Source of the DNA: Acidicapsa acidisoli
Lineage (GTDB): Bacteria > Acidobacteriota > Terriglobia > Terriglobales > Acidobacteriaceae
DNA: 64,000 nucleotides
Assembly: GCF_025685625.1 (NCBI RefSeq)
Contig: NZ_JAGSYI010000001.1
Coordinates: 558,001 to 622,000 of the forward strand
Reading direction: 5' to 3'
Shown piece after piece: positions 16,252 through 18,773 of this stretch. Each line of letters starts with the position of its first letter. The first letter of the stretch is position 1. The translations under genes were made by a program, and so were the position numbers. A model generated the notes under the pieces. That model was not told the DNA's origin. It did no database searches and saw only the letters and a list, made by a program, of their open reading frames with translations.

Positions 16252-16325
16252 GACAATCTGTCTAACGGTCCGGAATCTGCCGGCTAAGATTCGGCATATC
16301 GAGAAAAAATGACCCTTGCACGAGA

Positions 16326-16348
16326 GATTATTATACACTTGACACAGA
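16326..16348. repeat. left terminal inverted repeat of the transposon
   Basis: 23 bp, identical to the right end except at positions 3 and 4. The inner part contains TTGACA, which also serves as the -35 box of the transposase promoter. The 8-bp target duplication GCACGAGA precedes it. Confidence 0.9.
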
Positions 16349-16367
16349 AAGAGAATAGCGCGATACT
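16339..16367 (+). promoter_or_regulatory. predicted transposase promoter inside the left end
   Basis: TTGACA at 16339-16344, a 17-bp spacer and GATACT at 16362-16367 (4 of 6 consensus). It lies 23 bases before the transposase ATG, and the SD-like GAGGGCGCT is just upstream of that start. Confidence 0.6.
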
Positions 16368-16390
16368 TGAGATGTAGTCAAGAGGGCGCT

Positions 16391-17353
16391 ATGAACTTGA
16401 TAGACGTAAACGAAAAGTTCGCAACCGACGAGCAATGCTTGGTGTATCTGGAACAGATGCGCTGGCCGGATGGTATCGTTCTCTGCCCTGTATGTGGCTG
16501 CGACCGAATCAGCCGGATCACTCGCAAAGTCACCAAAGACACCGACAATAAGCGAGCGCAGCTTTACCAGTGCCTTGAGAAGACCTGCAAACAGCAATTC
16601 TCGGCTACCAGCGGAACGATCTTTAACGACTCGCATCTCCCATTGCACAAGTGGTTCATGGCTCTGGCGCTGGTCGTAGACGCGAAAAAGGGCATGAGCG
16701 CGAAGCAATTGCAGTCCCACTTGGGTATTGGCTCTTATCGCACAGCATGGTATCTGTGCCATCGCATCCGCAAGGCAATGGACGTGGATCAATCCGAGTT
16801 CCCTAAGATGACCGGCGTAGTGGAAATGGACGAAACCTATGTCGGTGGGAAAACGATTCGTCGGGGCAAGCAGGCGGGACGAGGAACAAGGAATAAAGAC
16901 ATCGTGGTTGCGATCCGTCAACGCGGTGGCCCGGTGCGCTTCATGCAGGCCGATTCAGTGCGCGCTGAAGACCTGAAAATGATCGCGGAAGCATACATCA
17001 GCGATGACGTCGAAATGATCGTTACGGATGACTTCAAGAGCTACCCGCTGGCCCTTAAGCGGTTCGAGGGAAAGCATCACCGCATCAACCATTCACTCGG
17101 TTACTATGTTCGCGGCGACGAAAACGAAATCCACACAAATACCGTAGAATCAGCGTTTTCTCTATTCAAACGCGGTCTAAATGGCAGCTATCACATAGTT
17201 TCAATAAAGCATCTTCACCGCTACTTAGCAGAGTTTGAATATCGCTTCAATGAACGCAAAAATGCAGATCGTTTCCAGAAGATTCTAGGCCGCATGATGC
17301 AGGCCGAACCTCTAGAGTACAAGGCTATTACTGCTTCGCCGGAGCAGGCTTAG
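16391..17353 (+). CDS. IS1595-family transposase
   Basis: 320 residues from ATG 16391, preceded by GAGGG. The N-terminal zinc ribbon uses C32, C35, C61 and C66 (LCPVCGC..LYQCLEKTC). A helix-turn-helix follows (AKQLQSHLGIGSYRTAWYLCHRIRKAM). The DDE-type core is D147 (VEMDETYVGGK), D213/D214 (VTDDFKSY) and N250-x-x-E253 with K260 (HTNTVESAFSLFKRG), the IS1595/ISXO2 signature. It appears full length and intact, so it could be active. It is the only transposase in the element, and its stop codon is TAG. Confidence 0.96.
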   Translation: MNLIDVNEKFATDEQCLVYLEQMRWPDGIVLCPVCGCDRISRITRKVTKDTDNKRAQLYQCLEKTCKQQFSATSGTIFNDSHLPLHKWFMALALVVDAKKGMSAKQLQSHLGIGSYRTAWYLCHRIRKAMDVDQSEFPKMTGVVEMDETYVGGKTIRRGKQAGRGTRNKDIVVAIRQRGGPVRFMQADSVRAEDLKMIAEAYISDDVEMIVTDDFKSYPLALKRFEGKHHRINHSLGYYVRGDENEIHTNTVESAFSLFKRGLNGSYHIVSIKHLHRYLAEFEYRFNERKNADRFQKILGRMMQAEPLEYKAITASPEQA

Positions 17354-17465
17354 GGGGGATTATCGTCCCGCCCGTCTTCTCACTTTTTATGGTCGTCGTC
17401 TTCTCATGCGGCGTGCTCATCATGCGATGCAACAAGCTGTCGAATTGCGACTTATCTACCTTCAA
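17328..17465 (-). CDS. 45-residue basic small protein encoded inside the transposon
   Basis: Starts at TTG 17465 with GAGAGGTG five bases upstream. The sequence begins MKVDKSQFDSLLHRMM and ends in a Lys/Pro-rich tail (TIIPPKPAPAKQ). It looks protein-like: an amphipathic N-terminal helix, then a basic disordered end. It resembles short hypothetical proteins that I have seen in other bacteria, but I cannot name a family. It is antisense to the transposase, overlapping its last 26 bases, so its transcript could affect transposase expression. Confidence 0.6.
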   Translation of the reverse strand: MKVDKSQFDSLLHRMMSTPHEKTTTIKSEKTGGTIIPPKPAPAKQ

Positions 17466-17625
17466 GGTTCACCTCTCTCCGGGTTTCTCCGGGTTTTTAC
17501 GGAATTAGTAGGTAGTTATACCAGAATTCCACCTTATCCACATGAATTTGCACTTGCGAAACTACTCAAAAGGTGCTCATACTTAGAAGTTGCTTATTTT
17601 CAGTACCGAGGTGCAGACGCACGAA

Positions 17626-17647
17626 AACCCCTCTGCCAGGAGGGGTT
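17626..17647 (+). other. 8-bp hairpin in the transposon cargo region
   Basis: AACCCCTC (17626-17633), loop TGCCAG, then GAGGGGTT (17640-17647). It may end transcripts from the transposase side, but there is no following T-run. The surrounding 17466-17740 holds no other supported gene. Confidence 0.5.
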
Positions 17648-17740
17648 CCGCGAAGAGGTCGGAGTTAAGGTCAACTACTAACGAACTGTCCTTAAACTAC
17701 CTGCCAATCACTCTCAAGTCAATACCAATTCGCCGAAGCC

Positions 17741-17774
17741 TGAGGAAATCCCTGCTTACTAAGAGGGTTCCTCA
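17741..17774 (+). other. bulged hairpin immediately before the unusual tRNA
   Basis: TGAGGAAATCCCT (17741-17753) pairs with AGGGTTCCTCA (17764-17774), giving 7 and 4 bp around a 2-nt bulge and a 10-nt loop. It ends 7 bases before the tRNA 5' end and could mark a processing site. Confidence 0.5.
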
Positions 17775-17781
17775 CAAAAAC

Positions 17782-17865
17782 GGAGGGCGACTAGCAGGTG
17801 CTAGGTAGGGGATTTATACCCCCGAGTTCCCGGACAGGAATGGAGTTCGACTCTCCCGCCCTCCG
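17782..17865 (+). tRNA. allo-tRNA, 8/4 cloverleaf, anticodon UUA (candidate ochre suppressor, Ser-like)
   Basis: Acceptor stem of 8 bp: GGAGGGCG (17782-17789) with CGCCCTCC (17857-17864). The T stem has only 4 bp (GGAG 17842-17845, CTCC 17853-17856) around the classical loop TTCGACT. The D stem is CTAGC/GCTAG with a 4-nt loop AGGT. The anticodon stem has four G-C pairs (17808-17811 with 17819-17822) closing the 7-nt loop ATTTATA, so the anticodon is UUA (17814-17816). Position 37 is U, which is unusual. The variable arm is long (stem TTCC/GGAA, 17827-17840). The discriminator is G17865; CCA is not encoded. An 8/4 acceptor branch and long arm match the allo-tRNAs reported from Acidobacteria and resemble tRNA-Sec or tRNA-Ser. 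Serine identity is inference from the long arm and G73. Confidence 0.85.
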
Positions 17866-17912
17866 CTGCTATAAAGGTAACGCACTTCCGCCGACATCAA
17901 CAGGAGTTTCCC

Positions 17913-18155
17913 TTGGGGATCAAAAATCTACCGCTGGATTCGGGGAGAAAAATTGCCAAGATTTTCGAAGTATCGTTTGGATGGCAACCGCACCAAGGCA
18001 AGGGGCACATTGTCTTAACTCATCCACAAAAATCGCCTCACCTCTTTATCTCCATTCCAGATCACAAACACTGTGACCGGGCTCTACTCAAGTCAGAACT
18101 GCGGAAGGCGGGGATATCAGAGGACGATTTCTGCAGGGCTTATCACGGTCGTTAG
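17913..18155 (+). CDS. HicA-like mRNA interferase toxin
   Basis: 80 residues from TTG 17913, with CAGGAG six bases upstream. The layout is the HicA double-stranded RNA-binding-like fold: an N-terminal helix (GRKIAKIFEVSFGWQP), the glycine-rich GKGHIVLTHPQ with the candidate catalytic H32, then a strand and a final helix (ALLKSELRKAGIS). HicA toxins cleave mRNA. It starts 48 bases after the tRNA on the same strand and may be cotranscribed with it. Its stop overlaps that of the convergent HicB-like gene by 3 bases. No other toxin family fits better. Confidence 0.75.
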   Translation: MGIKNLPLDSGRKIAKIFEVSFGWQPHQGKGHIVLTHPQKSPHLFISIPDHKHCDRALLKSELRKAGISEDDFCRAYHGR

Positions 18156-18469
18156 ACTGAGATTAGTTCAGGCCCCTTGAGACGAAAACACTCTTCATCG
18201 AGTTCTTCCGCAGGAATCCTATCCTGATGTTCGGCTTCGGATTCTGAGAAAAGCTGGCCGAGACGCACTAATAGGACTGACTGCATCGCATCGATGATAT
18301 TTGCTCTCGCTTCATCCTTCGTCTTACCCTGAGACATACATCCGGGCAATTGGGGACACTCAGCAATGATGTATCCGTCTTCTCCCCGAGAGAATACAAC
18401 ACCTAAAACTGCCTCGGGAGTACTGACTACAACTTCTTGCTGGCGACGCGCAAACAATTTCTTAAACAT
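18152..18469 (-). CDS. HicB-like antitoxin
   Basis: 105 residues from ATG 18469, with GAGGG just upstream. Residues 18-65 are the HicB partial RNase H-like fold (AVLGVVFSRGEDGYIIAECPQLPGCMSQGKTKDEA), which binds and blocks HicA. The C-terminal part is acidic and lacks a clear ribbon-helix-helix or HTH DNA-binding domain. It is convergent with the HicA-like gene, unlike the usual same-strand hicAB operon, so it needs its own promoter, probably near the palindromes at 18553-18649. Confidence 0.8.
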   Translation of the reverse strand: MFKKLFARRQQEVVVSTPEAVLGVVFSRGEDGYIIAECPQLPGCMSQGKTKDEARANIIDAMQSVLLVRLGQLFSESEAEHQDRIPAEELDEECFRLKGPELISV

Positions 18470-18552
18470 GACACCCTCGTTACCAGACAGATTCGCAACT
18501 GTGGAAAGCGGAATCCTTGTGAAGCAAAACAATAGCACGTTAAATCGACAAC

Positions 18553-18649
18553 GCTTGCACAATTTTAGACTCTATTGCAAGCGTAAGGTTTCAGAAATCC
18601 CACAATAGGGGCAGGAGGCGCATCATTCCCACTGCAATCAATTGCAGTG
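18553..18649 (-). promoter_or_regulatory. two palindromes upstream of the HicB-like gene
   Basis: CGCTTGCA (18553-18560) pairs with TGCAAGCG (18577-18584), extended to 9 bp by the outer A-T pair at 18552/18585. Further upstream, CACTGCAAT-CA-ATTGCAGTG (18630-18649) is a perfect 20-bp palindrome. Both lie between the antitoxin start and the right end, where an operator for autoregulation would be expected. Confidence 0.5.
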
Positions 18650-18736
18650 CTTAACATCTCCTAAGGTACTCTATTCGCTATAAAATCCGAGCGCGCTGCC
18701 CTGTCACGGTATCAATAGTGCAACATTTTCGGTGCA

Positions 18737-18759
18737 TCTGTGTCAAGTGTATAATCGTC
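18737..18759. repeat. right terminal inverted repeat of the transposon
   Basis: The 23-bp right end, read inward, differs from the left end only at positions 3 and 4. It abuts the second copy of the target duplication GCACGAGA at 18760-18767. Confidence 0.9.
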
Positions 18760-18773
18760 GCACGAGATTTTCC

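What the first reader, a model, noticed from the sequence alone, without database searches (positions are those of the whole stretch)
17782..17865. Non-canonical 8/4 tRNA with a UAA-reading anticodon
The sequence folds with an 8-bp acceptor stem, 4-bp T stem with an intact T loop, 4-nt D loop, long variable arm, discriminator G and anticodon UUA in a 7-nt loop. A normal tRNA is 7/5; the window's own tRNA-Arg shows the contrast. Allo-tRNAs with 8/4 or 9/3 branches are known from Acidobacteria and were proposed to act as missense or nonsense suppressors or regulators. UUA would decode ochre stops. Many chromosomal genes here end in TAA, so an efficient suppressor would be costly: it is probably weak, regulated or conditional. 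No CCA is encoded, and position 37 is U rather than a purine.
Basis: partly seen in the sequence, partly recalled or inferred. Interest (0 to 1): 0.93.

Follow-up and report, generated by a model that had tools for sequence, protein, structure and literature searches.

The report
Transposon carrying its own matched tRNA
The odd tRNA is probably not a stop-codon reader but part of a jumping gene whose own transposase uses the rare codon AUA at set places when such a tRNA rides along, which suggests that the element carries a private piece of genetic code.

Summary
The RNA at 17782-17865 is a real 8/4 allo-tRNA, but its UUA anticodon is not secure: a GGGG/CCCCC run allows a 7- or 8-nt loop, the minimum-energy fold takes 8, and sister tRNAs pair only with 8. 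It lies inside a complete 2434-bp IS1595-family transposon (16326-18759) with inverted ends, an 8-bp target duplication, transposase, tRNA and a HicA/HicB-like pair. Many relatives with anticodon UAU sit in such transposons, whose transposases carry 2-7 AUA codons at fixed columns: AUA at column 256 or 264 in 38 of 40 tRNA-bearing rows and 0 of 76 tRNA-free ones, 13 ambiguous rows set aside. Only 8% of these AUA codons share a column with AUC/AUU; other codons scored 68-100%. In six related transposons whose tRNA has anticodon UAA, columns 4 and 264 hold UUA instead, 6 of 6. So the transposon's tRNA very probably reads codons of its own transposase. Ile is rejected at the minor AUA columns; Ser is the best guess, unproved. 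Nothing in the transposase supports UAA reading. This looks like a transposon with a private sense-codon meaning; biochemistry is needed.

The parts
16318..16325 (.). left copy of 8-bp target site duplication GCACGAGA
   Evidence: identical to 18760-18767
16326..18759 (+). IS1595-family transposon, 2434 bp
   Evidence: inverted ends plus 8-bp duplication; transposase matches PF12762 110.7 bits and PF12760 49 bits
16326..16348 (+). left terminal inverted repeat GATTATTATACACTTGACACAGA; it also holds the TTGACA of a promoter-like site 16339-16367
   Evidence: promoter scan 10 of 12, though 2 sites found against 2.1 expected by chance
18737..18759 (-). right terminal inverted repeat
18760..18767 (.). 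right copy of target duplication GCACGAGA
16391..17353 (+). transposase (320 aa), zinc ribbon + ISXO2-like DDE domain
16400..16402 (+). AUA codon, transposase residue 4 (alignment column 4)
17195..17197 (+). AUA codon, transposase residue 269 (H-AUA-VS)
17204..17206 (+). AUA codon, transposase residue 272 (alignment column 264, S-AUA-KHL)
17741..17774 (+). predicted hairpin just upstream of the tRNA; similar-looking hairpins precede the tRNA in many relatives
   Evidence: whole stretch folds only slightly better than shuffles, z -1.44; flanks read by eye; not tested for covariation
17782..17865 (+). 8/4 allo-tRNA with long variable arm, discriminator G
17812..17819 (+). anticodon loop AUUUAUAC (8 nt); likely anticodon UAU at 17815-17817, ARAGORN's UUA at 17814-17816
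17913..18155 (+). HicA-like toxin gene (80 aa), cargo
   Evidence: PF07927 27.2 bits, cut-off 27
18152..18562 (-). HicB-like antitoxin gene, cargo, convergent with hicA
   Evidence: PF21748 22.7 and PF15919 18.6 bits, both under cut-off

Best explanation
The tRNA is cargo of an IS1595-family transposon and reads AUA codons in that transposon's own transposase. Shown by sequence: it lies between the inverted ends inside a target duplication; its core anticodon is UAU in relatives; AUA occurs at fixed columns of the transposase in transposons that carry such a tRNA and hardly without it; when the tRNA's anticodon is UAA the codon at two of the same columns is UUA. Inferred: the tRNA is made and charged, most likely with Ser by SerRS (long variable arm, G73, no G3:U70; identity rules recalled), so the transposon's AUA means Ser, not Ile. 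The transposase then has its intended sequence only when the transposon's tRNA is present, which ties transposition to the element's own tRNA supply. In the window the loop has one extra 5' base and is expected still to read AUA.
For: (1) Element: both inverted ends in 16 loci; exact 8-bp duplication in 13 of the 15 with both flanks held, window included; L048 is off by one base, L040 has none. (2) Codon separation: in 32 tRNA-bearing transposases only 8% of 132 AUA codons lie in a column that also holds AUC/AUU; every other codon listed (at least 8 occurrences, with synonyms) lies between 68% and 100%; in 76 tRNA-free transposases AUA scores 98% of 46. Enlarged set: 18 of 164 against 37 of 40. 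(3) AUA at column 256 or 264: 38 of 40 tRNA-bearing, 0 of 76 tRNA-free; at least 3 AUA: 39 of 40 against 5 of 76 (13 ambiguous rows set aside). (4) Covariation: six non-duplicate transposons with a UAA-anticodon tRNA have UUA at columns 4 and 264 in 6 of 6 (12 of the 13 UUA among their 172 Leu codons); the 41 UAU ones have AUA at these columns in 29 of 40 and 30 of 41 and never UUA. (5) Nine in-clade tRNA-free transposases with at least 3.4 kb held on each side have no AUA at 256 or 264 and AUC/AUU at column 4 in 6 of 9. (6) At minor AUA columns (29 columns, 76 codons) Ser scores +3.0 and Ile -97.9; one vote per column Ser -7.2, Ala -8.1, Ile -36.1, whereas true Ile codons in rare columns score Ile -40.4 and Ser -73.1. 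(7) Of 41 tRNAs 37 have G73, none G3:U70. (8) Tree of 135 transposases: all rows labelled UAU or UAA fall in one clade of 68 (SH-aLRT 99), the UAA ones in one subclade.
Against: The amino acid is not fixed: column bootstrap winners are Ala 695, Ser 596, Lys 332, Thr 180, Gln 114 of 2000, and at the three main columns the tRNA-free profile favours Val/Ile. Three of the nine in-clade tRNA-free transposases keep AUA at column 4. Independent events are few: 4 of 4 pairs (6 on all branches), sign test p 0.125; the UAA group is one subclade. The UAU group was defined with at least 2 AUA, which removed L230 and L073. Nine AUA-rich transposases show no tRNA: seven lie within about 1.6 kb of a contig end on their downstream side, L234 is broken, L218 is cut upstream and unexplained; counting all 13 set-aside rows as tRNA-free gives 11 of 89 instead of 0 of 76. 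The review section read reports that UAU allo-tRNAs were not used for translation in E. coli and that irregular allo-tRNAs were not charged by E. coli enzymes (PMC7609411). No expression, charging or protein data were available.
Confidence: 0.8

Rival explanations
1. Rare-codon supply without recoding: the tRNAs carry Ile (UAU) and Leu (UAA) and merely make the transposase depend on the element's own tRNA; the codons are kept because they are slow or regulated.
For: tRNA-free relatives often have Ile or Val at columns 4 and 256; AUA and UUA both code for bulky hydrophobic residues in the standard code.
Against: Minor AUA columns are mostly Ser/Thr/Lys/Glu-type columns in relatives and reject Ile; column 264 is mainly Ala, Val and Glu in tRNA-free relatives, with no Ile or Leu among the residues listed (64 of 69 rows shown); column 256 in UAA elements is Thr or Asn; a class-II body with G73 does not fit IleRS or LeuRS (recalled identity rules).
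Confidence: 0.15
2. Brake instead of licence: the host reads AUA as Ile and makes active transposase; the element's Ser-tRNA puts Ser there and poisons it, limiting copy number.
For: Ile or Val is common at columns 4 and 256 in tRNA-free relatives; AUA is replaced by neither AUC/AUU nor a Ser codon at the three main columns.
Against: AUA also falls on a Ser/Lys column (230) in 8 of the 41 transposases, where an Ile form should be the damaged one; Ser codons are two steps from AUA, so their absence needs no special cause.
Confidence: 0.15
3. Ochre suppressor as first proposed: the tRNA reads UAA through a UUA anticodon.
For: ARAGORN's call; the review reports 9/3 allo-tRNAs with ochre-reading anticodons; one transposon, L194, carries a second tRNA called UUA.
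Against: Register ambiguous in the window, 8 nt in the minimum-energy fold and in sister tRNAs; window transposase has three AUA and no internal stop.
Confidence: 0.05
4. A regulatory RNA of the toxin-antitoxin cargo, not a decoder.
For: Cargo includes HicAB-like genes and, judged by eye from translations, RelE/HigBA-like and ImmA-like genes near other copies; [quoted passage not shown]
Against: The cargo differs from element to element while tRNA and transposase stay; codon/anticodon covariation has no place in this reading.
Confidence: 0.04
5. A selenocysteine tRNA.
For: Rfam tRNA-Sec 46.6 bits, just under its cut-off of 47.
Against: No selA match in the window's own genome, while the same search finds E. 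coli; anticodon is not UCA.
Confidence: 0.01

Closest known systems
Allo-tRNA, UAU group (Mukai et al. 2017; the paper was not held, seen only through section 7 and passages of the review PMC7609411)
   Same: 8/4 branch, long variable arm, anticodon UAU, Acidobacteria; one pseudogene overlapped a transposon-related gene; [quoted passage not shown]
   Different: Here the tRNA is placed inside complete IS1595-family transposons with ends and target duplications, and its anticodon is matched to codons at fixed sites of the transposase. The review describes the group as unusable for translation in E. coli; this report proposes a specific mRNA that it serves.
IS1595-family transposons with passenger genes (family traits recalled)
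   Same: Zinc-ribbon + ISXO2-like DDE transposase, inverted ends, 8-bp duplication, passenger genes.
   Different: The passenger is a tRNA gene whose anticodon follows a codon of the transposase. I know of no described IS of this kind (recall; the listings of paper searches showed none, listing 15 of 824 papers).
Phages with suppressor tRNAs and recoded stop codons (starts of abstracts of PMC10879173 and PMC9523058 seen)
   Same: A mobile element carries a tRNA that reads its own codons differently from the host.
   Different: Those phages recode a stop codon; here a sense codon is used at a few fixed places of one transposase, in a 2-4 kb insertion element.

Membership tests
allo-tRNA | 12-bp acceptor branch split 8/4 or 9/3 | tested here: met
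   8/4 register pairs fully in 40 of 41 T stems, 7/5 in 1 of 41; fifth pair fails in the window
allo-tRNA | long variable arm, Ser-type identity | tested here: met
   5-bp variable arm; G73 in 37 of 41, no G3:U70; charging itself not testable
allo-tRNA-UAU group | anticodon UAU | tested here: inconclusive
   core UUAUA conserved; window register ambiguous, several sisters pair only as an 8-nt loop
IS1595 family | ISXO2-like DDE and IS1595 zinc-ribbon domains | tested here: met
   110.7 and 49 bits, both over cut-off
IS1595 family | terminal inverted repeats and 8-bp target duplication (the 8-bp length is recalled) | tested here: met
tRNA-Sec | UCA-type anticodon with selA in the genome | tested here: not met
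   no selA match; anticodon loop AUUUAUAC
ochre suppressor tRNA | UUA anticodon in a 7-nt loop | tested here: inconclusive
   possible but not unique register; sister tRNAs and the minimum-energy fold speak against it
element-borne recoding tRNA | altered decoding shown in protein | not testable with these tools
   needs mass spectrometry

The most novel reading that the evidence does not exclude
A family of insertion sequences with a private genetic code: each transposon carries a Ser-charged tRNA (UAU, or UAA in one lineage) and writes functional Ser residues of its transposase with that tRNA's codon (AUA or UUA), so the transposase is made correctly only from the element's own tRNA. A second, unrelated transposase family (DDE_Tnp_IS1) may have done the same.
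Probability: 0.55. Interest if true: 0.95.

Novelty: categorically new. Interest (0 to 1): 0.9.

Why it matters
Sense-codon reassignment is known in whole genomes and organelles (recalled), and phages reassign stop codons. A small transposon that keeps its own meaning for a sense codon inside a host with the standard code would be a new way to couple a mobile gene to its own tRNA, and would give the abundant UAU allo-tRNAs of soil, for which the review section read here offers only a guess, a concrete job. It also makes an open question testable with one reporter and one transposition assay.

Tried and rejected
Ochre decoding: looked for a unique 7-nt loop and for a stop inside the transposase; neither found. 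tRNA-Sec: no selA. A DNA motif as the cause of the AUA codons: rejected because UUA takes two of the same places when the anticodon is UAA. L194's second tRNA (UUA): no convincing gene with an in-frame UAA seen in the first 1900 bases of the locus. Origin of the 7/5 UAU tRNA of L194 from a host tRNA: blastn found only short weak matches beside the two element copies, so the tRNA-Ser resemblance of L194/L197 is by eye. No blastn match of 17500-18200 in plasmids at E 1e-5.

Flawed or weak steps: the codon-profile control left out the tested codon itself and so misread AUC, AUU and AUG (it also misread UGG); one search repeats the test correctly. The rare-column control shows that one-vote-per-column scores often miss the true residue (Ile, Ser, Thr among others), so Ser is not decided by it. 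The 50-bit cut for the first 41 tRNAs is arbitrary: matches go on without a gap (49.8, 47.3 bits), that the weaker ones are ordinary tRNA-Ser was judged from length only, and relatives found later beside transposases score as low as 16-43 bits. In one search the script's top fold for the window, L048, L058, L059, L065 and a few others was not the anticodon arm; the window's registers were read from the sequence.

Rows dropped before counts: copies of other loci (L157, L158, L159, L077, L082, L079) and L047, L070, L107 were set aside by hand; the tRNA-free group there was limited to GC3 over 0.5 and at most 2 AUA. In some searches the UAU group needed a UAU or model-only tRNA within 4.2 kb and at least 2 AUA; that rule removed L230 (model hit of E 0.72, 0 AUA; counted as tRNA-free) and L073 (0 AUA), and L047 and L070 were removed by hand. 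In some searches the 71 tRNA-free rows were chosen to have at most 2 AUA and none at 256 or 264, so only speaks to those columns. One search set aside 13 ambiguous rows (9 AUA-rich without a tRNA in view, plus L239, L193, L217, L070); all 13 counted as tRNA-free would give 11 of 89 instead of 0 of 76. L118 (Chloroflexi, tRNA-Leu UAA nearby, no AUA or UUA) was taken for a host tRNA. L296 was fetched and not used.

Full report
What is there. The sequence at 17782-17865 is a convincing 8/4 allo-tRNA: ARAGORN call, fold z-score -3.05, 46.6 bits to Rfam tRNA-Sec (cut-off 47), while the ordinary tRNA model does not reach its cut-off there. Five of 100 related genomes, the window's own included, had a blastn match. 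A covariance model from five sequences gave 40 matches of 50 bits or more in 398 family genomes and one more from a class-level genome found; these 41 are. The cut is arbitrary, since weaker matches follow without a gap. In the 41 the 8/4 register pairs fully in 40, G73 stands in 37, no G3:U70 occurs, and CCA is encoded in 14.

Anticodon. Most of the 41 have a clean 5-bp stem and loop CUUAUAA, anticodon UAU. The window belongs to a subset with loop AUUUAUAC. In L050, L051, L055 and L064 the arm closes only around 8 nt; ARAGORN itself reads L051 with a four-base anticodon. In the window, GGGG can pair with either four of five C, giving a 7- or 8-nt loop, and the minimum-energy fold takes 8. UUA is therefore one of two registers, not a plain reading of the sequence.

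Context. Twenty-one of the 41 tRNA loci had a common protein within 3.5 kb, in 19 of them upstream on the same strand; in the window and L043 it is an IS1595-type transposase by Pfam, though L047's is of another subgroup and L054's is a fragment. Inverted repeats of the form GATTATNCACTTGACACA flank the block; 27 of 41 loci show at least one such end with at most two mismatches within 4.6 kb, 16 show both. Of those 16, 15 have both flanks: 13 have an identical 8-bp duplication, the window's being GCACGAGA, one is shifted by a base (L048), one has none (L040). In the window the transposon is 16326-18759 and holds transposase, tRNA, a HicA-like and a HicB-like gene. Cargo differs between elements; the transposase and tRNA are the constant parts (judged by eye).

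The codons. Transposases of these elements have 2-6 AUA codons although GC3 is about 0.6-0.75. Seven other reading frames of the window use AUA for 8 of 117 Ile codons. In 32 tRNA-bearing transposases AUA falls at columns 4, 256 and 264 (23 of 31, 25 of 32, 24 of 32) where AUC and AUU never occur, while 17 columns rich in AUC/AUU contain AUA twice. Only 8% of AUA codons share a column with AUC/AUU; every other codon listed lies between 68% and 100%, and AUA in tRNA-free relatives lies at 98%. The enlarged set gives 18 of 164 against 37 of 40. Thus AUA is not interchangeable with the Ile codons when the tRNA is present.

The switch. Six non-duplicate transposons (L231, L233, L235-L238) carry a long-arm tRNA with anticodon UAA. 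Their transposases have UUA at columns 4 and 264 in all six, and only one further UUA among 172 Leu codons. They form, with one contig-end copy, one subclade (support 100) beside the UAU group, inside a clade of 68 that holds every row labelled UAU or UAA (support 99). Nine tRNA-free members of this clade have ordinary codons at 256 and 264; three of them keep AUA at column 4. With 13 ambiguous rows set aside, AUA at 256 or 264 stands in 38 of 40 tRNA-bearing and 0 of 76 tRNA-free transposases; all 13 counted as tRNA-free would give 11 of 89. Pairs of rows on separate branches agree 4 of 4, too few for significance.

Which amino acid. Against a profile of 71 tRNA-free relatives, the minor AUA columns score Ser +3.0, Ala -18.0, Thr -24.9, Ile -97.9; one vote per column gives Ser -7.2, Ala -8.1, Lys -12.3, Thr -15.3, Ile -36.1. 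True Ile codons in rare columns give Ile -40.4 and Ser -73.1, true Ser codons Ser -49.4 and Ile -201.6, so AUA behaves unlike Ile, but the winner is often not the true residue in this control. Eight transposases have AUA at column 230, a Ser/Lys column. The three main columns favour Val/Ile when taken alone, but column 264 is mainly Ala/Val/Glu in relatives and column 256 is Thr or Asn in the UAA group. With the tRNA's Ser-type features, Ser is the best guess; Ala is unlikely without G3:U70 (recalled identity rule). AUA is two changes away from every Ser codon and one from AUC/AUU, so keeping AUA and never AUC/AUU is what selection for a non-Ile residue would leave behind (inference).

A second family. 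L037, L039, L062 and L287 carry a UAU tRNA beside an unrelated transposase (PF03400 DDE_Tnp_IS1, 32.4 bits for L039 and 30.0 for L062) with 5-7 AUA codons. Of 18 other copies with no UAU tRNA in view, 16 have 1-4 AUA and two short matches, L288 and L290, have 6 and 7. This is suggestive only.

Mechanism proposed. Shown: position in the transposon, codon/anticodon matching, non-Ile columns. Inferred: expression, charging with Ser, effect on activity. The likeliest role is a licence, the transposase being made in its proper form only with the element's tRNA; a brake is the main alternative direction.

Known and new. The 2017 paper was not held; I read section 7 of the review PMC7609411 and passages found by search. 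It reports the UAU group as the most abundant allo-tRNA in soil and sediment, not usable for translation in E. coli, one pseudogene overlapping a transposon-related gene, and a guess of transposon or toxin-antitoxin links. Searches showed in their listings no paper describing a transposon-borne tRNA matched to codons of its transposase; one search listed 15 of 824 papers, and only open-licence papers are held. Phage stop-codon recoding is the nearest principle (abstract starts).

Noticed in passing
L037, L039, L062, L287: An unrelated IS1-type transposase with 5-7 AUA codons at conserved places also travels with a UAU tRNA.
   Followed up: partly
L251, L252, L254, L256, L257, L265, L266, L267: IS1-type transposases without a UAU tRNA in view keep AUA at one identical place (EV-AUA-SK/R and the like), in seven of these eight as the only AUA of the matched stretch.
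   Followed up: partly
L278:3408-3497: Long-arm tRNA with anticodon CUA 106 bp from an IS1-type transposase that has no UAG inside.
   Followed up: no
L194:1366-1550: Tandem tRNAs UAU and UUA downstream of an IS1595 transposase with 4 AUA; target of the UUA one unknown.
   Followed up: partly
L047:4457-4539, L060:4445-4527, L075:4475-4562: Related allo-tRNAs with other anticodons (UAC, GCA, UUC by ARAGORN); their matching codons, if any, were not sought.
   Followed up: no
L115, L123, L134: Actinobacterial (Rubrobacter-type) IS1595 transposases with 7, 6 and 3 AUA, one of them in each case at the start-codon column; no UAU tRNA found in the flanks held.
   Followed up: no
L043, L050, L051, L065: Palindrome TCTCAAAAAAGAGA or close to it, and a second similar one, lie between a divergent RelE/HigBA-like pair (by eye) and the tRNA, as if one repressor controlled both.
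   Followed up: no
L037-L039, L041, L062: A conserved small protein (LGAKGG..TAKRG..YFRKIASMRK) is encoded on the opposite strand downstream of the tRNA.
   Followed up: no
window 17741-17774: Predicted hairpin just upstream of the tRNA; many relatives have a G+C-rich hairpin at about the same place followed by GTGGTGAGC.
   Followed up: partly
window 17913-18562: The HicA-like and HicB-like genes are convergent and overlap by four bases, unlike the usual operon order (recalled).
   Followed up: no
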